Below are positions 1-19,019 of a DNA stretch of 22,304 nucleotides, piece after piece. Location: positions 1-22,304 of the IMG/VR virus record IMGVR_UViG_3300045922_000301. One strand, given 5' to 3'. The translations under genes were made by a program, and so were the position numbers. This DNA is from a virus. Each line of letters opens with the position of its first letter. Positions within the stretch are counted from its first letter, which is position 1. The notes under the pieces are model-generated. The model did no database searches and was not told the DNA's origin. It saw only the letters and a list, made by a program, of their open reading frames with translations.

Positions 1-244
1 GGCTACCCTGCATTGCAGCGTCACCACATGATATGGGATCGCCTGTCCTAGACTGTTGTCGCCCATTTGTATACACTGTTGGACTACCAAATAGCAGGAT
101 TCCCGAGTGGCATGCGCTCGAACAACAGTTGTGAACGAAAACTCCGTTCTCGAGCATAAAATTATGAGAATTATGCCCGACCTCAATATCATATACCTTT
201 ACGGGGGTTTCTAATCTTAAAAAAGTTTTATTCTTAATTTTCAT
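1..244 (-). CDS. C-terminal half of split PAAR spike-tip protein (C-intein + C-extein), partial
   Basis: This gene starts at ATG 244-242, with AAGG at 253-250 as ribosome-binding site, and runs off the window at base 1. The first 39 residues are a complete C-intein. They carry the block F motif VYDIEVGHNSHNF and end in GVFVHN, with the penultimate His and terminal Asn needed for Asn cyclisation. The next residue is Cys, the +1 nucleophile (codon 127-125). The C-extein then reads as the second half of a PAAR domain: a CCSSACHSG cysteine/histidine cluster, then GSPTVYTNG and RTGDPISCG, the repeat pattern typical of PAAR proteins. In T4-like phages the PAAR protein (gp5.4 in T4) caps the membrane-piercing spike. 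The ORF has no N-extein of its own, so it makes sense only as the trans-splicing partner of the gene at 1270-1728. It is missing from most simple ORF scans because it is short and cut by the edge. Confidence 0.9.
   Translation of the reverse strand, partial: MKIKNKTFLRLETPVKVYDIEVGHNSHNFMLENGVFVHNCCSSACHSGILLFGSPTVYTNGRQQSRTGDPISCGDAAMQGS
128..244 (-). other. C-intein segment (39 aa)
   Basis: This is the C-terminal intein fragment, including its initiator Met. It ends in the block G sequence VFVHN, followed by Cys+1. Its length is close to that of known naturally split C-inteins (about 35-40 residues). Confidence 0.9.
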
Positions 245-249
245 ACGAA

Positions 250-253
250 CCTT
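250..253 (-). promoter_or_regulatory. Ribosome-binding site of the C-intein gene
   Basis: AAGG on the minus strand lies 5 bases before ATG 244-242. It supports independent translation of the C-half, rather than this being the remnant of an interrupted long intein ORF. Confidence 0.6.
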
Positions 254-316
254 GTAAATATTTTGAGTCGCGGAACAGCCTTTCTCACTCAATCTAATAC
301 CGCAGGAGTATTAGTT

Positions 317-1291
317 ATGGACTATTTATCACATTATAAAGCTCTTATTAGAAAAGTCAAATCTGAAAACAGACAAAAATTATCAAAGGATCATCCAAAA
401 TACATTTATTATGAGACTCATCATATAATACCCAGGTGTTTGCTTTGCCACAAATCAGAAAAAATTATTAATGGTGAATGGAACCTAGTGTTATTAACTG
501 CACGTGAACACTTTGTTGCTCATCTGTTATTATGGAAGATTTATAAATCTTCCTTTGGGGATAATAGCAAAAGAACTCAGAAATTGCTAAATGCTTGTGT
601 TAAATTCTGGAATGTTTCTGGTGAACGTCACAAAATAAATTCTCATACATACCAAATTCTTCGAAACGAATTTAGTTCTTATCGTTCGTCCGTTGAAGTT
701 AGCCAGGAAACCAAAAAGAAATTGTCAGATAAAACAAAAGAAAGATTGGAAAAAGGAATTCATAACTTCCAAACGAACCATCCTATGAAAAATATAAAAA
801 ACCAAAATATCATTAGGGAATCAAATCTAAAAAGAGCAAGACAGGGAACACTCAACTTCCAAACCAATAACCCGATGAAGGATCTAGAGTTTGCCAAGAT
901 GCAAGGAATAAAACGTTCAATTAGATGGAAAAATTTGACAGAAAGTGAAAGAGCACAGGCGAGTTCTCAAAGGGAAGCAAAAAGCAAAATAACTAGAATA
1001 AAAAATGGAACCAATAAATGCAATCTTTCCGAAACTGCAAAAAGAGAACTTTCAGAAAGAATGAAAACAAATAATCCTTCACATCGAAGAAGCCAGGAAG
1101 ATCTTTCATTATCAGCCAAAAGAAAAATGAAATCGGTTGCAAACAAACTCCAAAAACTAATGGAGTTGCATCAACTAGAGATTTATGAACATACCTGGGA
1201 TCAAAATATCAAGAAATTAAAAGAACTAGAAATTATCAAAGGATCAATCAGTTGGAAAGTCTACCAATATTATTTGAATTTTGAATTTTGA
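317..1291 (+). CDS. HNH homing endonuclease with NUMOD3-like repeats
   Basis: Free-standing homing endonuclease of 324 residues. ATG 317 is chosen because AGGAG at 304-308 lies 8 bases upstream; an in-frame TTG at 263 has no such site. The N-terminal part has an HNH (beta-beta-alpha metal) nuclease core: ETHHIIPR (His35, His36), EWNLVLLT (Asn56) and REHFVAH (His65, His69). The C-terminal part is basic and repetitive. The motif GxxNFQTNxPMK occurs at about residues 147-158 and 177-188, with weaker copies near 231 and 250, as in NUMOD3 DNA-binding modules of phage homing endonucleases. It is encoded antisense between the two halves of the split-intein PAAR gene, and its last 22 bases overlap the 3' end of the N-half gene. 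It probably cuts intein-free PAAR alleles so that the module spreads, but the target site is inferred. The gene looks more AT-rich than its neighbours, which fits horizontal transfer. Confidence 0.88.
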   Translation: MDYLSHYKALIRKVKSENRQKLSKDHPKYIYYETHHIIPRCLLCHKSEKIINGEWNLVLLTAREHFVAHLLLWKIYKSSFGDNSKRTQKLLNACVKFWNVSGERHKINSHTYQILRNEFSSYRSSVEVSQETKKKLSDKTKERLEKGIHNFQTNHPMKNIKNQNIIRESNLKRARQGTLNFQTNNPMKDLEFAKMQGIKRSIRWKNLTESERAQASSQREAKSKITRIKNGTNKCNLSETAKRELSERMKTNNPSHRRSQEDLSLSAKRKMKSVANKLQKLMELHQLEIYEHTWDQNIKKLKELEIIKGSISWKVYQYYLNFEF

Positions 1292-1728
1292 ATATTATCA
1301 AATTCTGTTAAATCTTTGGCCATTTTGTAAACGCCTGACTCAAGAAGAAACAGGTGTTCAGGAGTACATTTGACTATAGTTCCATCTTCAAATTCAATTT
1401 CTACTAGTTCAAAAACTTCCTTGCAAAAAACTTGAACAATTGGAGTTTGGATCTCTTCATGAATGTCAAAAGAAGTTGTAAAAAATTTCTTTTGAAATCT
1501 CTCATGGCCTTTGAGGTATTCATTGTGGATTTCTAAAAAACTAACAAAACAGCCATTTACTGTTAACATTGTTTCTCCAACAAAACAATGCGTATCCCAC
1601 AAATCAAATTGTCTATGATTGGGGAGTCCATTGGTATAGATGTTGGGACTGGCCGTAATATTTGGTCGAGGAGGCCAACAGCCGTGACCCTGGCTCAAAT
1701 CACCCAGTCTTGTCAAGGGTTTGGTCAA
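1270..1728 (-). CDS. N-terminal half of split PAAR spike-tip protein (N-extein + N-intein)
   Basis: The 47-residue N-extein reads RLGDLSQGHGC, then ASPNIYTNGLP, and ends LWDTH, which is the first half of a PAAR domain. Cys1 of the intein is at 1587-1585. The 105-residue N-intein opens CFVGETMLTVNG (block A) and has block B at about residues 69-80 with the TxxH motif (CTPEH: Thr75, His78). It ends at a TAA stop, 1272-1270, without any endonuclease domain, as in naturally split N-inteins. I chose the TTG start at 1728-1726: it overlaps the upstream gene's stop (TTGA), has AAAAGG 8 bases upstream, and gives MTKPLTRLGD, a normal PAAR beginning. An ATG at 1818 would add 30 residues unlike PAAR and overlap the upstream gene by 94 bases. 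Spliced to the gene at 1-244, the product would cap the tail spike. Confidence 0.88.
   Translation of the reverse strand: MTKPLTRLGDLSQGHGCWPPRPNITASPNIYTNGLPNHRQFDLWDTHCFVGETMLTVNGCFVSFLEIHNEYLKGHERFQKKFFTTSFDIHEEIQTPIVQVFCKEVFELVEIEFEDGTIVKCTPEHLFLLESGVYKMAKDLTEFDNIQNSKFK
1273..1587 (-). other. N-intein segment (105 aa)
   Basis: This runs from Cys1 (codon 1587-1585) to the last sense codon before TAA. It contains block A (CFVGETML) and block B (GTIVKCTPEHLFLL), with the Thr and His that assist the N-S acyl shift. The length is typical for the N part of a naturally split intein. Confidence 0.9.
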
Positions 1729-2222
1729 GAGCAACACCTTTTGTGTTTGATTGTTGGCGCATGTGTGTGTTTTGCGTGACTCATATGGCCCAGTTTGTGA
1801 GTTAACGAGCACGAACATCCATTCCGATTCTTTACACGTTTTTTCAAACGATGAAACGCATGTGCCATCTCTTGATGTCCTCTTTTTGCATTGGTATAAA
1901 ACTCTTGGTCAGGAATGGGATTTCCATGTGAATCAAATTGAGTTGGATTGAGCCAGATGCTGTATCGTAGGCCTGGATGTTTGGTGTCATCAACTGTAGT
2001 ATTGCCACTCATTAAAATGATGTGCTGATCACTCCTAATAGTGATATTCTTGTTTGAATACAACTCGATGCCTGATGGTCCTTCATGCCACATGACCTGT
2101 GATTTGAAGTCGCTGGGTTCTGTTGATGTTAGGGAAGTTGAAACTGCTGTTTCAGCAACCTGTTGGTCTACCAGCAGTTTATTACTTGGATTCATGAAAG
2201 CGGTTTTTAAAGATTTCCACAT
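1725..2222 (-). CDS. Uncharacterised protein with His/Cys-rich tail, upstream of PAAR
   Basis: I do not recognise this 165-residue protein. ATG 2222-2220 is taken as the start; an in-frame TTG at 2228 lies just before it. The middle has a stretch rich in beta-branched residues, GIELYSNKNITIRSDQHIIL, of the kind seen in beta-helical or OB-fold phage spike parts. The last 32 residues are rich in His, Lys and Cys (CSCS, then HKLGHMSHAKHTH, ending KRCCS), a possible metal-binding or DNA-binding tail. Its stop overlaps the PAAR start (TTGA), so the two are probably translated together, and a role in the baseplate hub or spike is a reasonable guess. No function is claimed. The start overlaps the end of the upstream gene by about 40 bases, in line with the compact operon. 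Confidence 0.7.
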   Translation of the reverse strand: MWKSLKTAFMNPSNKLLVDQQVAETAVSTSLTSTEPSDFKSQVMWHEGPSGIELYSNKNITIRSDQHIILMSGNTTVDDTKHPGLRYSIWLNPTQFDSHGNPIPDQEFYTNAKRGHQEMAHAFHRLKKRVKNRNGCSCSLTHKLGHMSHAKHTHAPTIKHKRCCS

Positions 2223-2987: not shown

Positions 2988-3043
2988 CTGTGCCTTCAGC
3001 TGGTTTTATCATTTGTTTAGCATAGTGGATATTGTTGTTTGTG

Positions 3044-4138
3044 TCAAATCTTTAATTCACTTATGATGTCGTCAGTGACATCTTGATTGATTGCGCTGAC
3101 CAAGTAGCTGGAAATTTCCGTTTCCTGTGGAGCTACTCGAACATTTTTGGAACCCAGCCAACCATCAACCCATGGCAAAGGATTCTGCGCAGTAGCTTCT
3201 GGGAAAATCTTACCAAGACCTATCACTTGGCTGCGTCGGTTGACAATCCATTCCACATACTCTCCCAACATTTCCGCATTGAGCCCAATCATGCTGCCAT
3301 TTCGGAACAGATACTCGGCCCATCTTTTTTCTTCCTGTGCAGCTTGATCAAACATCTCAATCATTTGCGGACGAATGGACTCAAACACGTCTCCATATCC
3401 TTCCCTGTCTCGGAGAATTTTTATCAACTGTTGAGTGAGGCTCAAGTGCATGGCCTCATCTCTGGCTATGAGTGTTATGATTTTTGCGTTGCCTTCCATG
3501 AGATTGAGCTCACCCAAAGCAAATGCACACGCAAAACTCACATAAAAACGAACACCTTCCAGTATGTTGATTGCAGTCAAAGCCAGCATGAGTGTTTTGC
3601 GGTCTTGTTCGGTGACCGCATATCCAGGCTGTTGATACATCAAGCTGAGTTCAACAAGTTTGTCATAATGTTGTGTGACTGTGGCCGCTCTTTCAATTAT
3701 TGGCTGAATGTCCAAAATTTGGTCAAACACCAGTTCGGGTTTGGCAAACAAATTCTTGATCAAATAAGTGTATGATCGTGAGTGTATGGTTTCAAAGAAA
3801 TCCCAAGTGACCACACATCCTTCAAGTTCGGGAAGGCTCACAAGTGGCAGAATAGCACTCACTGGACCACGACCTTGAACGCTGTCCAGCATGATTTGAT
3901 AGCTCAAGTTTTTGACAAACACATCCTGTTGAACTTCGGTAAGTTTGTCCCAATCATTTCTATCTTTTTGTAGAGAAATTTCTTCTGGCTTCCAAAACAT
4001 CTCCATCATTCTCTTGTTGAGAGTATCCAACGCAGGATATTTGGGGTTTTCATAGGTTTGCAATCCAAGCCTTTCTCCAAAAAACAAAGGTTGTTTCTGC
4101 CAGTTGATTTGATTCAAATTGATTATTCTATTGGTCAT
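3044..4138 (-). CDS. nrdB: Class Ia ribonucleotide reductase, beta (radical) subunit
   Basis: Small subunit of ribonucleoside-diphosphate reductase, which holds the di-iron centre and tyrosyl radical used by NrdA to make deoxynucleotides. The E. coli-type ligand set is visible: Asp85 (IMLDSVQGR), Glu116 and His119 (FETIHSRSY), radical Tyr123 in the same motif, and the later RDEAMH pair of Glu and His ligands. The length (364 residues) is normal. The C-terminus carries ETEISSYLV and a terminal acidic/hydrophobic tail that would dock on NrdA. ATG 4138 has AGAGG 5 bases upstream. It follows nrdA by 42 bases on the same strand, which hold a TATAAATT box. Phages carry nrdA/nrdB to raise the dNTP supply during replication. 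Confidence 0.96.
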   Translation of the reverse strand: MTNRIINLNQINWQKQPLFFGERLGLQTYENPKYPALDTLNKRMMEMFWKPEEISLQKDRNDWDKLTEVQQDVFVKNLSYQIMLDSVQGRGPVSAILPLVSLPELEGCVVTWDFFETIHSRSYTYLIKNLFAKPELVFDQILDIQPIIERAATVTQHYDKLVELSLMYQQPGYAVTEQDRKTLMLALTAINILEGVRFYVSFACAFALGELNLMEGNAKIITLIARDEAMHLSLTQQLIKILRDREGYGDVFESIRPQMIEMFDQAAQEEKRWAEYLFRNGSMIGLNAEMLGEYVEWIVNRRSQVIGLGKIFPEATAQNPLPWVDGWLGSKNVRVAPQETEISSYLVSAINQDVTDDIISELKI

Positions 4139-4160
4139 AGGCCTCTGTTAGTTTTATTCT

Positions 4161-4168
4161 AATTTATA
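4161..4168 (-). promoter_or_regulatory. Late-promoter-like box TATAAATT before nrdB
   Basis: This matches 7 of 8 bases of the T4 late -10 box TATAAATA and lies 22 bases upstream of the nrdB start, in the short nrdA-nrdB gap. It could be chance in AT-rich sequence, since nrd genes are usually expressed early or middle. Confidence 0.3.
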
Positions 4169-4180
4169 CTAGTTGCTTTC

Positions 4181-6451
4181 TTAGATCTTACATGCGCCAC
4201 TGTCACATCCAGAATCCGCTTGAGTGTCAGCGTCGTTTTCATTTCCATCATTTGTGTTGTGATAATACAAAGTTTTCAAACCCAGCCGATAGGCCAAGAA
4301 CAAATCTTTGACAAGCTCGCTCATGGGTACGCCTTTGTCTCCCCAATTTGCTGGGTTATAGCTGGTATTGGTTGATATGCTTTGGTCAACAAATTTCTGC
4401 AAGACTGCCATGACCTGTAGGTATCCTTGATTTGATTTCATATCCCAGAGTTTTTCATAGTAGTTTTTGTATTTGGAGTATTCAGGACTGATGGTTTTTA
4501 AGTCCCCTCTTTTGCTTCTTCTAATAGTCAAATGCTCTCTGATGGGGTCAATGCCGGAAGTTGCATAACATACGATCGACGATGACTCCGTTGGAGCAAT
4601 CGCAGTCAGACAGCAATTTCTCATACCATATTCCAACACTTGTTCTCTGAGCTGGTCCCAATCATGTTCAAGAACAAATCCTTGACTGACTAGTTCGTCA
4701 ACATTCCTGTTATATGTGTCTATGGGCAACCGTCCATCCGAATATTTGGATGTATCAAAGGCAGGAGCTCGACCTTTTTCTTTGGCCAGTGAGACACTGG
4801 CCTTGATGCAATTGTATTGAACATTTTCCATCATTTGATGTGCTAGATGCAGTGCTTGTTCTGAATCCCATGAGATTTTGTTTTTGGCAAACACATAGGC
4901 CAAATTGATGACGCCTATTCCCAGTGTTCGTTGTTCTTTGGTGTATGACTCGGCTGCTTGGATGGGATATCCCTGATAATCAATGAGTTCGTCCAAAGCT
5001 CTAACGGTCAAGTCGCATACCTTTTCCATTTCATGTTCTTTGACTGCACCTAGATTAATTGAACTGAGAATACATGTGGCAACTCTGCCTTGGTCATCAT
5101 CAATGTGGTTGATGGGTTTGACTGGAAGCAAAATTTCTTGACAGAGATTGGACATTGCAACGTGTAGCTTGGTATGGCTGTGACTGTTGCAGTGGTCAGC
5201 ATTATAAATGTAAATTCTTCCCGTTTCAGCTCTCTCATTTAACAGAGTGTGAACAAAATCTCTTGCTGGCAGTTGTTTCTTTCTGATGCCTGGCATCTGC
5301 TCATAATGTTGATACAAATCATCAAATTCTGGATGACCAAAAGATTCATACAGCCCTGGCGTCTGTTCATTGGAAAACAAAGTGATAGTCTCATTCCTGA
5401 CGTATCTCTCATATACCAATCTACTCAAGCCAATGGAATAGTCAACATGCCTTACAGATGTTTCCTCACTGCCTTGGTTGTTTTTCAACTGAACAATGTC
5501 TTCGATTTCCCAATGGAAAAATGGAAAATGAACAGTCACTGCTCCTCCTCTTAGTCCGTTTTGGGTGAATGAATGCGCCACCGTTTGAACATTTCTAGCC
5601 AAAGGAATAATTCCAGTATGCTCAACTTCTCCACCTCGGATTTTGGCTCCTTTGCCTCTAATTCTGCCCATGTTCATACCAATGCCTGCTCGTTGAGCCA
5701 CATAATACCCCATGGCTGCTTGAGTATGAATAATACTATTCAAGTTGTCATCCATATCAAAAAGAATGCAACTGGCAAATTGTCTCAGAGGAGTTCTAAC
5801 ACCAGCAATTATTGGGGTGGGTAGTGAAATTTTGTGTTGACTGATGATGTCATAATAATCTTTCACATACTTGAGTCTTGACTCCACGGGATACCCACCA
5901 AACAGACACGCAGCAATCAGCACATACATGAATTGTGGAGTTTCATAGAGTTCGCCAGTGATGCGATCTTGAACCAAATATTTGTCTACACACTGTTTGA
6001 GTCCAGCATGAACAAAATTCAAATCACGTTCGTGTTTGATGAAACCATTGATTTTTTCCCATTCCTCTTGTGAATAAGTGTCCACCAACTGTTGGTCATA
6101 TACCCCTTTGGCAATATTCCGTTTGACCAGTTCCAACACATGCGGAGGAGTCTCACTCATCCAAACTTGCTTGCGAATTGAAAACAGCAACAACCGAGCG
6201 GCTGCGTACTGATAGTTGGGGTTTTCCAAACTGATCAAATCAACTGCGCTTTTGATCAGGATTTTCTGTATCTCATCAGTTGACATGCCATCATAAAACT
6301 GTATCGAACTCTTCATTTCTATTTGACTGGGGAAAACCCCACTCAATCCTTCACAGGCACTCATGACCATTTTGTGCAACTTGCTCAAACGCAATTGTTC
6401 TTGCGAACCGTTTCTTTTGACCACACGAAGTTCTTGCTCGGTTGCAATCAT
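4181..6451 (-). CDS. nrdA: Class Ia ribonucleotide reductase, alpha (catalytic) subunit
   Basis: Large subunit of ribonucleoside-diphosphate reductase, 756 residues, near the length of E. coli NrdA. In order: an N-terminal ATP-cone-like region (RVVKRNGSQEQ, residues 9-19); active-site Cys228 (FASCIL); the catalytic NLCQE motif with Asn435, Cys437 and Glu439; Cys460 (VATCILS), the partner of Cys228; the radical-transfer tyrosine pair in LKTLYYHNT; and the redox-active C-terminal pair CDSGACKI (Cys749, Cys754). The last is nearly identical to the E. coli end, CESGACKI. No intein or intron interrupts it, although nrd genes are frequent intein hosts. ATG 6451 has AAAGGA about 7 bases upstream. 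It is co-oriented with nrdB, and a CTAAATA box lies upstream. Confidence 0.97.
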   Translation of the reverse strand: MIATEQELRVVKRNGSQEQLRLSKLHKMVMSACEGLSGVFPSQIEMKSSIQFYDGMSTDEIQKILIKSAVDLISLENPNYQYAAARLLLFSIRKQVWMSETPPHVLELVKRNIAKGVYDQQLVDTYSQEEWEKINGFIKHERDLNFVHAGLKQCVDKYLVQDRITGELYETPQFMYVLIAACLFGGYPVESRLKYVKDYYDIISQHKISLPTPIIAGVRTPLRQFASCILFDMDDNLNSIIHTQAAMGYYVAQRAGIGMNMGRIRGKGAKIRGGEVEHTGIIPLARNVQTVAHSFTQNGLRGGAVTVHFPFFHWEIEDIVQLKNNQGSEETSVRHVDYSIGLSRLVYERYVRNETITLFSNEQTPGLYESFGHPEFDDLYQHYEQMPGIRKKQLPARDFVHTLLNERAETGRIYIYNADHCNSHSHTKLHVAMSNLCQEILLPVKPINHIDDDQGRVATCILSSINLGAVKEHEMEKVCDLTVRALDELIDYQGYPIQAAESYTKEQRTLGIGVINLAYVFAKNKISWDSEQALHLAHQMMENVQYNCIKASVSLAKEKGRAPAFDTSKYSDGRLPIDTYNRNVDELVSQGFVLEHDWDQLREQVLEYGMRNCCLTAIAPTESSSIVCYATSGIDPIREHLTIRRSKRGDLKTISPEYSKYKNYYEKLWDMKSNQGYLQVMAVLQKFVDQSISTNTSYNPANWGDKGVPMSELVKDLFLAYRLGLKTLYYHNTNDGNENDADTQADSGCDSGACKI

Positions 6452-8524: not shown

Positions 8525-8923
8525 TTAATCCCATTTCTCCGAGAGGTTGGACTGAAAATGTGTCTTTTGAAAATCAAAGAAATCGTCATCATCGTCAATG
8601 ATTAATATCTTTCCTCTCATTTTTTCTTTCTTTAACCAAGCAAGAATTTCTCTTCCTCGATGGCCTTCCTTGTCATCTGGAGTAGTCAGACGCTTTTGAT
8701 AGAGATGGCTAGTATTTAGGCCGTTAGCATCCAAAATATCACTGAGTGACACTGTCGTGTGCAACTTTTTCCAAGATGAGCTAATCACAATTTTGGCTCC
8801 AGTCTGTTCGCATAACCGATTAATCATTTGAACTGCTACGGGGTCAAATTTTCTTGATCCAAATGCCATCATACTCCTGGGAGTTACTAGAACTCCATCT
8901 ATGTCCAAGAATATTACCTTCAT
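8525..8923 (-). CDS. HAD-superfamily phosphatase-like protein (copy 1)
   Basis: HAD-fold protein of 132 residues. The N-terminal motif IFLDIDGVL has the nucleophile/acid Asp pair (DxD). VISSSWKK is motif II (Ser), HRGREILAWL follows, and LIIDDDDD is the motif IV acid cluster. This set (FLDIDGVL, ISSSW, HRGxEI, IDD) is the pattern of small HAD domains found alone in phages or fused in multi-domain RNA-repair proteins. That points to a phosphatase on nucleotides or nucleic-acid ends, but the substrate is unknown. ATG 8923-8921 is preferred; the TTG at 8941 would overlap the upstream gene. It lies just 1 base after the stop of the gene at 8925. A second, longer relative is at 16876-17376. Confidence 0.8.
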   Translation of the reverse strand: MKVIFLDIDGVLVTPRSMMAFGSRKFDPVAVQMINRLCEQTGAKIVISSSWKKLHTTVSLSDILDANGLNTSHLYQKRLTTPDDKEGHRGREILAWLKKEKMRGKILIIDDDDDFFDFQKTHFQSNLSEKWD

Positions 8924-8924
8924 A

Positions 8925-9689
8925 TTACACCCGAGTGTCAACCTTTATTTTAATAATGTTTTGATTTGAATTATCAATAATCCTAGCTATTTCTTGCAAA
9001 TGAGAATATCTCTTTTCTGAACATTTGATATTGGTCATTATCATAGTCTTTTTTCTGAATGTTGTTCGGGTCTCAACAGATACCTGGCTATTTCTTTTTG
9101 GCAAAGCGTTAATTCCAGTAGATGCTAAAAAATAGTCTGTGATAGCCTTGCCCAGTTTGTTTCTTTGATATTCTATTTTAATGGAAACCCGATGAACGCT
9201 TCTTCCTTGGTTATAGTGTTCGTTGGCATCCACTATTTCCTTTGATTTAGCAATAGCAAGGTGGATGAGAGTTCTATATTCGTGCCATCTCATTGCATCC
9301 AAGTCGTTGTATTTGGCATCAAATACAGTGAAAACTATAATCTTGTTTGTGTTGTCATGTGACGGCTCAACAGTGAAGCCTACCAACAATGAATCAGTGT
9401 TGATTTCTATTTGACAAAAATATTTCCTAATTTTTAGATGGTGTTTGTTCACGTCGCACCCAGTCATTTTTTTAGGCAAATCTGTGTGCTGCACCTGAAT
9501 TGGGTCCAGAGCAATCAAACAACGTATCATTTTTTGATTTTGAAAATAACTTTTAACAGATTGGCAAACTTCCTTTGATTGAGACGAGTCAAATCTCTGC
9601 TTGATTCTCAATCGAGCATGAGAAGAGATTTTTACCGAACTGAGTTCAGGAATCACTAACCTACTATTTTTCTGAAGAAATCCCAACAT
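8925..9689 (-). CDS. Uncharacterised protein, 254 aa
   Basis: I do not recognise this protein. It is basic, with no membrane segment or signal peptide. Residues about 21-34 (KISSHARLRIKQRF) follow an HAxxRxxxR pattern seen in some small phage and toxin-like proteins, but this is too short to assign a family. The middle contains a hydrophobic, strand-rich region (KIIVFTVFDAKYND). The protein ends one base before the HAD gene start, so the pair is probably co-translated. Codon and base use look more mixed than in the neighbouring structural genes, which would fit an accessory insertion between nrd/tailspike and gp14. Confidence 0.65.
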   Translation of the reverse strand: MLGFLQKNSRLVIPELSSVKISSHARLRIKQRFDSSQSKEVCQSVKSYFQNQKMIRCLIALDPIQVQHTDLPKKMTGCDVNKHHLKIRKYFCQIEINTDSLLVGFTVEPSHDNTNKIIVFTVFDAKYNDLDAMRWHEYRTLIHLAIAKSKEIVDANEHYNQGRSVHRVSIKIEYQRNKLGKAITDYFLASTGINALPKRNSQVSVETRTTFRKKTMIMTNIKCSEKRYSHLQEIARIIDNSNQNIIKIKVDTRV

Positions 9690-16027: not shown

Positions 16028-16879
16028 TCAAACAATTCCTCTTCTTTGAACCTCTTCAATGACAGCTTGTGTCAAATCCCAATCATATGAAACACTGTCT
16101 TCATTCAAAATGTCAAGATTGACTATGGCCCAGGAAAAATAACTGTCAGGTAGTTGTGATAGCAGTTTTCCTTTGTGTGTGCCTATTGGCCAAGTACTAA
16201 TGGGGATTCTTGAGCGAGCAATCTCATAGGCTAGATCCAGCAATACGTCACTGTCATTTGTTTGATATGTTTGTTCAAGCTGATACAAAAGGTAGGCAAA
16301 GAGTTCAACTGTGACCATACAATCATCAAGAGCTCGGTGATAGGTATTGACACCAGAACATTGCAAATCAAGTGCATATCTCAAATAATTCAAACTGTAT
16401 ACACCAGCTAGACAGTCATCCTCTCGTATTGATGATTCATCAATGATGTGACGTGCCAGTCTATATGTGCATATCCAAGGTTGATGGAACATTTGACTTG
16501 CAATTTCATTGTTCAAGAATGCTCTTTTGATCACTTCTTGATCATATCTTGAGTTATGAGCAACTAGATATTTGGGAGGGTCAAATTCTGCTAACATTTC
16601 TAGAACAAGTTCAATTCCACGTTCGCTATCAATGGTAGGCTGAGACTCCAACATGCTGCGGCTTATGTTGTTTTTGCTTGAGGCAGCGAAAGGAATGGGA
16701 GCATGAGTTCCAAACAGTTGGCTGCGTCCTTTTTGGTTATTGGCGATTCCCAATTCACAAATTTCTGCCTTATCAAAGTTCAAGTTGGTAGTCTCAGTGT
16801 CAATGACCAAGCATTTGCTCAAGGCTTGGTCAATCGTTTTTCCATGTTTGTTTCTGAGATTGTTCATAAACCATTTCAC
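16028..16879 (-). CDS. DnaQ-like 3'-5' exonuclease with ExoX-type C-terminal domain
   Basis: DEDDh-family 3'-5' exonuclease. All motifs are visible: Exo I VIDTETTN (Asp27, Glu29), Exo II HNSRYDQE (Asp113) and Exo III HRALDD (His181, Asp186). After residue ~230 there is a second small module, IGTHKGKLLSQLPDSYFSWAI, of the DUF3820 type, which also occurs in ExoX-like proteins. It probably trims DNA ends in repair or recombination; RNA is possible. GTG 16879 overlaps the upstream HAD stop (GTGA). ATG 16867 is the alternative, with AAAAGG 11 bases upstream, and would shorten the protein by 4 residues. It lies in the recombination block with UvsX and the UvsY-like protein. Confidence 0.88.
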   Translation of the reverse strand: MKWFMNNLRNKHGKTIDQALSKCLVIDTETTNLNFDKAEICELGIANNQKGRSQLFGTHAPIPFAASSKNNISRSMLESQPTIDSERGIELVLEMLAEFDPPKYLVAHNSRYDQEVIKRAFLNNEIASQMFHQPWICTYRLARHIIDESSIREDDCLAGVYSLNYLRYALDLQCSGVNTYHRALDDCMVTVELFAYLLYQLEQTYQTNDSDVLLDLAYEIARSRIPISTWPIGTHKGKLLSQLPDSYFSWAIVNLDILNEDSVSYDWDLTQAVIEEVQRRGIV

Positions 16880-17376
16880 CTTTTAGAGATTTTTCTTAGA
16901 TTTCTTTCCAAAATTTTATTGCATTGCACCAAATGTTCAAAAAGAAAACCTTCTTTGGGATCAGTTTGCACATGATAGTCCTGTTGAGAAGCCCTCACAC
17001 ACGCATCATCTATGATAACGTATCCCATATAGTCAAAACCTTCCTCGTTCTGATCTTGTATCCACTCAGCAATCTCATCTCCTCTGTGACGATCTGATAA
17101 CTTAGCGGGGGTTGCCCAATCATTGTGAAAGATTCCATTGAACCCAGCCTCTTTGAGATAGTCTTTGACAATTCCATATGGTTGAAGTCGTCTCCAACTT
17201 GAACTTATGACAAACTCCACATCATATGAAGATGACATGTAATTGAGCATACCTATGGCCATTGCGTCAAAATTATGGGGATGATTATATCCATAGCGAG
17301 CAGCATATTCAGTTCGGTTACTGATGAGAACTCCATCTATGTCAAGAAATATAATTTGAGTGGTTATGAGTTGCAT
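16876..17376 (-). CDS. HAD-superfamily phosphatase-like protein (copy 2)
   Basis: HAD-fold protein of 166 residues. IIFLDIDGVL carries the catalytic DxD, VISSSWRR is motif II, HRGDEIAEWI follows, and YVIIDD is the acidic motif IV. It shares these signatures in the same order with the protein at 8525-8923 but is longer at the C-terminus, ending KILERNLRKISKR. Such HAD domains are related to phosphatase modules of phage RNA/DNA repair enzymes, so end repair or nucleotide dephosphorylation is plausible. The substrate is unknown. The stop overlaps the exonuclease start (GTGA), suggesting joint expression and perhaps joint work on nucleic-acid ends. Confidence 0.82.
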   Translation of the reverse strand: MQLITTQIIFLDIDGVLISNRTEYAARYGYNHPHNFDAMAIGMLNYMSSSYDVEFVISSSWRRLQPYGIVKDYLKEAGFNGIFHNDWATPAKLSDRHRGDEIAEWIQDQNEEGFDYMGYVIIDDACVRASQQDYHVQTDPKEGFLFEHLVQCNKILERNLRKISKR

Positions 17377-17906: not shown

Positions 17907-19019
17907 TTACTCCTCAACATGATCATCATGATCACTGTTGTTAATATCCAATACATCACTTGTTCCGCCATCATGACGTTTTTTGGATGTGAGCATGAAA
18001 TCTTGAGCCATCTTTTCCAACATTTCGTCTGTGAAATTCTTCTTGAACTCCAAAAATTCTGTTCCATCCTGTGCTTGATAGAGATAGCGGTTGCCCTGTC
18101 TTTTGAGAACTCCTTTCTTTTCAAAGAAATCAAACAATCCACTGGTTGGATCCATACCAGTGTTATAGGGAATTTTGATTTCAGCTTTTTCAAAAGGTTT
18201 GGCATATCTTGATTTCCTTACAGTGACTGCTGAACGTATGCCATTGACTTCAGAGACCTTGTTGCCATCTTCATCTTCTTTGAGCTTTCTTTTTTCAATG
18301 GCAACAATTATGGAGCTAGCAAATTCAAGTCCTTGACCTCCAGAAATTTTAGCATCAGGGTTAAACATGTCTTGGCTAGCAAACACGTGATTGGTGGCAA
18401 CAACTCCAATGGGCTGATCAGCAATTTTGTCTACAATGTTTCTGCACAAACTGGTCAACATTTTGGCTTTTCTTCCCATGTCTCCCTTCATGTCACCTTT
18501 TTCAAACTGTTCTTGTTCAGTGGGAGTAATCAACATGCCCAATGAATCAATGACAAACATGACTCTAGGCTTTTCGTCTTCTGGCAGATCGCCATATTCG
18601 TCTCGGTAAGTTTTAACAAAATCACTAATGGTTTTGCCCACTGTGTCAATTTGACTGGTAACGATTCTCAACAGTTTGTCTGGATGAGTATCAACACCTA
18701 GACGTTCCAGCCATTGCTCATCCAAAGCGTTTTCGCTATCAAAAAGAACTACCATTACTCCCTTTTGTTGTGCGTGGCGAATCAAGTTTCCTGAACAGAG
18801 GTAACTCTTGCCACTACCTGACTCTCCAGCAAACATGGTAAATTTGCCTTCCAATGGTACGCCTTTGTAAAAGTCGCCACTGATTAGATAATTGAGCATC
18901 AAGGAACCCGTGCTAATCCAAGTTTTTGGATCATTAAACCCAGTACTCAATCCTTTGATGCTTTTGGTAATTTCCTTTCTGAATTTTGATAAATCAACTG
19001 GTTTGGTCATATTGGCCAT
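17907..19019 (-). CDS. uvsX: RecA-like strand-exchange recombinase UvsX
   Basis: RecA-family ATPase of 370 residues that pairs and exchanges DNA strands in recombination-dependent replication and repair. Walker A is GESGSGKS at residues 65-72. Walker B is VMFVID ending at Asp158. A Glu-containing LFDSENALD stretch lies near residue 95, and the DNA-binding L2 region includes KISGGQGLEF. The C-terminus is Asp/His/Glu-rich (residues ~355-370). The start at 19019 has AAGGA about 10 bases upstream; the ATG at codon 4 is an alternative. It sits between gp32, from which it is separated by a terminator, and the UvsY-like gene, so the three presynaptic-filament proteins are adjacent. Confidence 0.96.
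   Translation of the reverse strand: MANMTKPVDLSKFRKEITKSIKGLSTGFNDPKTWISTGSLMLNYLISGDFYKGVPLEGKFTMFAGESGSGKSYLCSGNLIRHAQQKGVMVVLFDSENALDEQWLERLGVDTHPDKLLRIVTSQIDTVGKTISDFVKTYRDEYGDLPEDEKPRVMFVIDSLGMLITPTEQEQFEKGDMKGDMGRKAKMLTSLCRNIVDKIADQPIGVVATNHVFASQDMFNPDAKISGGQGLEFASSIIVAIEKRKLKEDEDGNKVSEVNGIRSAVTVRKSRYAKPFEKAEIKIPYNTGMDPTSGLFDFFEKKGVLKRQGNRYLYQAQDGTEFLEFKKNFTDEMLEKMAQDFMLTSKKRHDGGTSDVLDINNSDHDDHVEE

What the first reader, a model, noticed from the sequence alone, without database searches (positions are those of the whole stretch)
1..1728. Spike-tip PAAR gene fractured by a split intein
Two minus-strand genes together encode one PAAR protein. The first ends in a canonical N-intein (Cys1, TxxH, stop). 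The second starts with its own ATG and ribosome-binding site and a canonical C-intein (HNFMLENGVFVHN) followed by Cys+1. Spliced together, the exteins give a seamless PAAR domain. A split intein in a phage spike-tip protein is unusual: known split inteins sit mostly in replication, nucleotide-metabolism and terminase proteins. The penetrating tip would be complete only after protein trans-splicing, which could time or gate tail assembly.
Basis: partly seen in the sequence, partly recalled or inferred. Interest (0 to 1): 0.92.

Follow-up and report, generated by a model that had tools for sequence, protein, structure and literature searches.

The report
Split intein interrupts phage spike-tip gene
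In this phage the gene for the sharp tip of the tail spike is cut in two by a self-splicing protein element with a DNA-cutting 'homing' gene lodged backwards between the halves, and a second, only distantly similar phage fragment has the same arrangement, so the tip protein is very probably rebuilt by joining two separately made pieces.

Summary
On the minus strand, 1728-1270 encodes a PAAR N-half plus a 105-aa N-intein. 244-1 encodes a 39-aa C-intein plus a PAAR C-half that runs off the contig. The joined exteins pass Pfam's PAAR cut-off, and the joined intein passes the Pfam and NCBIfam intein cut-offs. The splice point lies directly after an invariant His aligned with a PAAR zinc ligand.

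Between the halves, on the opposite strand (317-1291), lies a MobE-family HNH homing endonuclease gene. GC content drops sharply at both intein/extein borders. This makes the locus a 'fractured gene' (split intein plus free-standing endonuclease), a known kind.

I found a second copy, IMGVR_UViG_3300038701_002102 (L046): same site, same split, same antisense HNH gene. Its endonuclease is truncated and has lost a conserved His, but both intein halves and PAAR remain intact. Intact PAAR genes with an empty site are common. No GenBank phage in the collection searched carries this element.

What is new is the extein (a virion spike-tip protein) and the antisense HNH endonuclease. The 'timing gate' idea has no evidence; a selfish element is simpler. 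Trans-splicing itself is inferred, not shown.

The parts
1588..1728 (-). N-extein: first 47 aa of the PAAR spike-tip protein (TTG start 1728, ends ...DLWDTH)
   Evidence: NF033420 matches residues 5-47 of the half
1273..1587 (-). N-intein, 105 aa: Cys1 (CFVGET), block B TPEH, ends at a stop at 1272-1270
   Evidence: TIGR01445 29.3 bits on the N-half alone (cut-off 24.5)
128..244 (-). C-intein, 39 aa: own ATG 244 with AAGG 5 nt upstream; VYDIEV...HNF; ends VFVHN
   Evidence: TIGR01443 33.2 bits (cut-off 15.6)
1..127 (-). C-extein: Cys+1 and at least 42 aa of the PAAR C-half; runs off the contig
317..1291 (+). Antisense MobE-type HNH homing endonuclease gene, 324 aa; AGGAG at 304-308; its 3' end overlaps the N-half gene by 22 nt (1270-1291)
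   Evidence: phrog_655 homing endonuclease, E 1.2e-24; T4-type MobE relatives; T6 MobE has the same HHIIP...N...REHF.AH core
245..316 (.). 72-nt divergent spacer between the C-half start and the endonuclease start, holding both ribosome-binding sites
   Evidence: an 11/12 sigma70-like match on the minus strand (360-333) lies just beyond it, inside the endonuclease gene, but such matches occur about 0.9 times per window by chance
1725..2193 (-). Upstream gene (155 aa from ATG 2193), weak spike beta-helix (DUF2345/VgrG-type) similarity, stop overlaps the PAAR start; probable spike neighbour, not part of the element
   Evidence: PF10106 E 0.004, below cut-off

Best explanation
A split intein interrupts the PAAR (T4 gp5.4-type) spike-tip gene of a large T4-related phage, directly after the invariant His of the D-x-W-x-x-H motif. 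A free-standing MobE-family HNH homing endonuclease gene lies backwards between the halves. The two halves are translated separately, the intein fragments associate, and class-1 protein trans-splicing (Cys1, block B His, C-terminal HN, Cys+1) joins the exteins into an uninterrupted PAAR domain. The unspliced halves each carry only two of the four aligned zinc ligands (His15 and His47; His54 and Cys81), so the tip probably cannot form without splicing. The unit (intein halves plus endonuclease) is a selfish mobile element: the endonuclease would cut intein-free PAAR alleles in a co-infecting phage and repair would copy the element in. Shown: anatomy, homology, the second copy, empty sites, composition borders. 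Inferred: splicing, zinc coordination, homing.
For: Profile matches for exteins and intein over curated cut-offs. Splice joint falls on an invariant PAAR column and the joined sequence aligns to 11 intact phage PAAR proteins with no gap at the joint other than the variable loop that follows it. 251 phage records carry an uninterrupted PAAR. Synteny: Pseudomonas phages PA5oct and MIJ3 have an intact PAAR gene just after nrdA-nrdB; here PAAR lies three small genes beyond nrdB. Second locus L046 with the same site, split point and antisense HNH gene; third codon positions diverge most in N-intein, C-intein and endonuclease alike, as under purifying selection on protein. In L046 the endonuclease has lost its tail and the REH His (REP) while intein and PAAR stay intact. 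GC: N-extein 48%, N-intein 30%, spacer/endonuclease 33%, C-intein 33%, C-extein 52%; the same step in L046. Empty sites DHWITH|C in eight IMG/VR loci. Break lies at about the DnaE split point, and Npu DnaE, gp41-1 and NrdJ-1 structures are matched. No Rfam intron. Zinc ligands and need for the metal-bound tip in a T6SS PAAR: PMC10715212.
Against: No experiment shows splicing. The window's C-extein is cut by the contig end, so the full product is unseen. Homing is inferred; no cleavage site is known. The element is rare (2 loci found, none in 50,697 GenBank phage records at the sensitivity used), so transfer between phages is not directly seen, and the two copies are too diverged to date. Pfam has no hit for the window endonuclease; its assignment rests on phrog_655 and MobE similarity.
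Confidence: 0.88

Rival explanations
1. Conditional gate: splicing of the tip is regulated (redox, metal, time) and so controls tail assembly.
For: The splice site adjoins an aligned zinc ligand and a Cys-rich stretch; a metal-bound PAAR tip is needed for function in a T6SS.
Against: No regulatory feature found; promoter-like and late-promoter-like matches are at chance level; intact PAARs in relatives need no gate; a selfish element explains the arrangement.
Confidence: 0.05
2. The halves do not splice but associate non-covalently into a two-piece PAAR, as the MobE-split NrdA of phage Aeh1 does.
For: A MobE-family gene lies between the halves; Aeh1 NrdA works in two pieces without splicing (PMC2988022).
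Against: Aeh1 is not described as having intein halves, whereas here both halves keep every canonical splicing residue in two divergent loci, and both intein halves show purifying selection.
Confidence: 0.05
3. HINT pretoxin-type processing of a PAAR effector rather than an intein.
For: PT-HINT (PF07591) matches the joined intein at E 5.4e-7.
Against: The element lies inside the PAAR domain and the flanks rejoin exactly; intein N- and C-terminal models pass their cut-offs; no toxin domain is seen, although the C-extein is incomplete.
Confidence: 0.02
4. Assembly artefact or dead gene remnant.
For: Single metagenomic contig ending inside the gene.
Against: A second independent contig has the same structure with diverged sequence; all frames open.
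Confidence: 0.02

Closest known systems
Fractured genes: split intein plus free-standing homing endonuclease (Dassa et al. 2009, cited through PMC6892783 and PMC10448857; the paper itself is not held)
   Same: Target gene cut into two reading frames, each with an intein half; endonuclease gene between them
   Different: Extein is a virion spike-tip protein; endonuclease is MobE-type HNH and antisense. The UvsX, DNA polymerase and NrdA cases checked here carry a same-strand free-standing reading frame of endonuclease type. Whether Dassa et al. report antisense cases could not be checked
Split PolB intein with endonuclease in Pseudomonas phages MIJ3 and PA5oct (PMC6892783; L048)
   Same: Same architecture, in phages whose PAAR gene also lies just after nrdA-nrdB
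   Different: Different extein, intein only 24% identical, same-strand endonuclease unrelated to this one by sequence search; their PAAR is intact
TerL split intein of L053 (IMGVR_UViG_3300015202_000348)
   Same: 43% and 41% identical to the two PAAR inteins, joins them in the tree (support 0.70), same split point
   Different: Terminase extein, Ser+1, no intact endonuclease between the halves
MobE homing endonucleases of T4-like phages
   Same: HNH core HHIIP..N..REHF.AH; phrog_655
   Different: T6 mobE stands between nrdA and nrdB; in Aeh1 it splits nrdA without an intein
Intact phage PAAR / T4 gp5.4
   Same: Joined exteins are a complete PAAR domain apart from the cut C-terminus
   Different: Not interrupted; endonuclease genes stand nearby in T4 (segC) and Campylobacter phages (hef)

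Membership tests
Split intein (class 1) | N-fragment starting with Cys/Ser, block B TxxH | tested here: met
   C1 and TPEH; TIGR01445 over cut-off; TPDH in L046
Split intein (class 1) | C-fragment with block F, terminal HN and Cys/Ser/Thr +1 | tested here: met
   VYDIEV...HNF, VFVHN, C+1; TIGR01443 over cut-off; the motifs are kept in L046 although its TIGR01443 score is below cut-off
Split intein (class 1) | Protein trans-splicing activity | not testable with these tools
   needs co-expression and mass spectrometry
Fractured gene (split intein plus free-standing endonuclease) | Two separate genes for one protein, each with an intein half, and an endonuclease gene between | tested here: met
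   second case L046
Fractured gene (split intein plus free-standing endonuclease) | Endonuclease of the family first described with fractured genes | tested here: inconclusive
   Here it is MobE-type HNH (phrog_655), with no sequence match to the reading frames lying between the halves of the other split inteins checked; but the original family could not be compared because the paper is not held. I treat this as a variable, not a defining, feature
PAAR spike-tip protein (PF05488) | Joined exteins match the PAAR profile over the curated cut-off | tested here: met
   33.7 bits against 27; PDB PAAR 4jiv and T4 gp5.4 matched
PAAR spike-tip protein (PF05488) | Four zinc ligands (3 His, 1 Cys) | tested here: met
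   His15, His47, His54 and Cys81 by alignment only; metal binding not tested
MobE-type homing endonuclease | HNH core and family profile | tested here: met
   phrog_655 E 1.2e-24 over residues 1-312; core compared by eye with T6 MobE
MobE-type homing endonuclease | Cleaves or nicks the empty allele and promotes its own transfer | not testable with these tools
   needs an endonuclease assay and a mixed-infection cross
Self-splicing RNA intron | Intron RNA between the halves | tested here: not met
   no Rfam match in the window

The most novel reading that the evidence does not exclude
Splicing at the zinc-ligand joint is conditional (metal or redox), so the phage completes its spike tip only under certain conditions and the element has become a regulator of virion assembly.
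Probability: 0.05. Interest if true: 0.9.

Novelty: new variant of a known kind. Interest (0 to 1): 0.52.

Why it matters
No paper found here reports an intein in a PAAR protein, and the other split inteins met in this scan sit in replication, recombination, nucleotide-metabolism or packaging enzymes. Here the product is a small structural protein at the tip of the cell-piercing spike, so completion of the puncturing tip would depend on trans-splicing of two separately made pieces at a metal-ligand position. Two divergent copies, one with a decayed endonuclease, suggest that the split form can outlive its mobility gene. It also adds natural split-intein pairs for protein engineering, and a second endonuclease type and orientation for the fractured-gene arrangement.

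Tried and rejected
Close-relative scans of IMG/VR with the N-half, C-half and endonuclease proteins gave nothing. An N-junction DNA pattern in IMG/VR and in bacterial/archaeal genomes gave no PAAR frame, only one TerL-like intein and chance hits. A C-junction pattern with a 12-residue loop found L046; the 13-residue version found nothing. An RNA hairpin over the endonuclease ribosome-binding site, as known for Aeh1 mobE, is not better than shuffles. Promoter and T4-late-promoter-like matches upstream of the C-half, inside the endonuclease gene, are at chance frequency. The two halves could not be folded as a complex: the folding rules admit only sequences read unchanged from DNA, so no structure job was run. 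Papers: no hit for split intein together with phage PAAR; Dassa 2009 is not held. Records very near the window may be hidden by the tools.

Full report
The window is a whole IMG/VR virus record of 22,304 bases. Its genes mark a large T4-related phage: NrdA, NrdB, a gp15-type tail sheath stabiliser, a UvsX-like recombinase, a terminase end, and a structural protein whose 15 best matches are all in jumbo phages such as Sinorhizobium phage Phosso, Salicola SCTP-2, PA5oct and Atu_ph07.

Anatomy. On the minus strand, a gene starting at TTG 1728, whose start overlaps the stop of the upstream gene, encodes 47 residues of a PAAR protein followed by 105 residues of an N-intein and a stop. A second gene starting at ATG 244 encodes 39 residues of a C-intein and then at least 42 residues of PAAR, until the contig ends. 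Between them, on the plus strand, lies a 324-residue HNH endonuclease gene (317-1291), whose 3' end overlaps the N-half by 22 nt and whose start is 72 nt from the C-half start. Each of the three starts has a plausible ribosome-binding site.

Is it real? The joined exteins pass the PAAR cut-off of Pfam and score better together than the halves apart. The joined intein passes the intein models of Pfam and NCBIfam and matches solved inteins including Npu DnaE, gp41-1 and NrdJ-1, with the break at about the natural DnaE split point (the DnaE split point is from general knowledge). The joined PAAR aligns to 11 intact phage PAARs, and the splice joint is exactly after the invariant His of D-x-W/Y-x-x-H. 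Published work on PAAR names three His and one Cys as zinc ligands in two solved PAARs and in T4 gp5.4, and shows a metal-bound tip essential in a T6SS (PMC10715212). By alignment the ligands here would be His15 and His47 on the N-half and His54 and Cys81 on the C-half, so neither half alone should make the tip. That is inference.

A second case. A junction-pattern scan of IMG/VR found contig IMGVR_UViG_3300038701_002102 (L046). It has the same layout: N-half at 1680-1234 (-), an antisense HNH gene at 944-1246 (+) and C-half at 861-595 (-) with a complete PAAR end. Protein identity to the window is 43% (N-half) and 51% (C-half). Third codon positions differ most in N-intein, C-intein and endonuclease alike, the mark of selection on protein. 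The L046 endonuclease is only 100 residues, has lost the C-terminal tail, and has Pro in place of the His of the REH motif that T6 MobE and the window protein share; it is probably dead. Intein halves and PAAR remain intact. This speaks against an assembly error and suggests that the split form persists without the endonuclease.

Mobile element. GC falls at both extein/intein borders: 48, 30, 33, 33 and 52% along N-extein, N-intein, spacer with endonuclease, C-intein and C-extein; L046 shows 39, 26, 29, 28 and 42%. Empty sites (DHWITH|CC and similar) occur in eight IMG/VR loci, and 251 GenBank phage records carry uninterrupted PAAR genes. PA5oct and MIJ3 have an intact PAAR gene just after nrdA-nrdB; in the window PAAR lies three small genes beyond nrdB. 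No GenBank phage record matched 80% or more of the L046 N-half. The endonuclease belongs to phrog_655 with T4-type MobE. Endonuclease genes also stand near PAAR genes in T4 (segC near 5.4) and Campylobacter phages (hef next to PAAR), so the spike-tip region seems a repeated target.

Comparison. The arrangement is a fractured gene in the sense of Dassa et al. 2009, a paper not held here and known through citing papers. A PolB split intein with an endonuclease is already reported in MIJ3 (PMC6892783). In the same scan I met split inteins in UvsX, DNA polymerase and NrdA, each with a same-strand reading frame of endonuclease type between the halves, and a TerL split intein without an intact one. 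The two PAAR inteins group together (support 0.94) with the TerL intein next (0.70). What differs here is the extein, a virion structural protein, and the antisense MobE-type HNH gene. No paper found here reports an intein in a PAAR protein, though the library is limited.

Mechanism. Most likely: separate translation, association of the intein halves, class-1 trans-splicing, a finished PAAR placed on the spike; and homing of the whole unit into intein-free PAAR alleles in mixed infection. How the C-half is transcribed is open: read-through from upstream is simplest, and promoter-like matches are at chance level.

Verdict: observation confirmed, interpretation partly supported, new variant of a known kind.

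Noticed in passing
L046 (IMGVR_UViG_3300038701_002102) 595-1680: Second PAAR split-intein locus with a truncated, probably inactive antisense HNH gene; nrdA, nrdB and a dCMP-deaminase-like gene lie on the same small contig.
   Followed up: yes
L053 (IMGVR_UViG_3300015202_000348) 3024-5303: Split TerL intein with only 138 nt between the halves; that spacer seems to hold a short remnant resembling the start of a homing endonuclease. It is the nearest relative of the PAAR inteins.
   Followed up: partly
L062, L063, L064, L103: Split inteins in UvsX/RecA-type genes with a free-standing same-strand endonuclease-type gene between the halves; the window's own UvsX-like gene (17907-19019) is intact.
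   Followed up: partly
W01 (Salicola phage SCTP-2, MF360958.1): At least five different intein N-terminal matches over cut-off in one jumbo phage by the TIGR01445 search.
   Followed up: no
NC_071039.1 164101-165123 (L008): In PA5oct the PAAR domain is fused to a C-terminal region annotated as tail lysozyme / muramoyl-pentapeptidase and marked as seen by mass spectrometry; the window's C-extein may likewise continue beyond the contig end.
   Followed up: no
window 8525-8941 and 16876-17376 (-): Two similar genes starting (V/I)IFLDIDGVL, HAD-like; apparently a duplicated family in this phage.
   Followed up: no
NC_042112.1 13742-15635 (L121) and NC_000866.4 80196-81072 (L122): Homing endonuclease genes (hef, segC) beside or near intact PAAR genes: the spike-tip region looks like a recurrent endonuclease neighbourhood.
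   Followed up: partly
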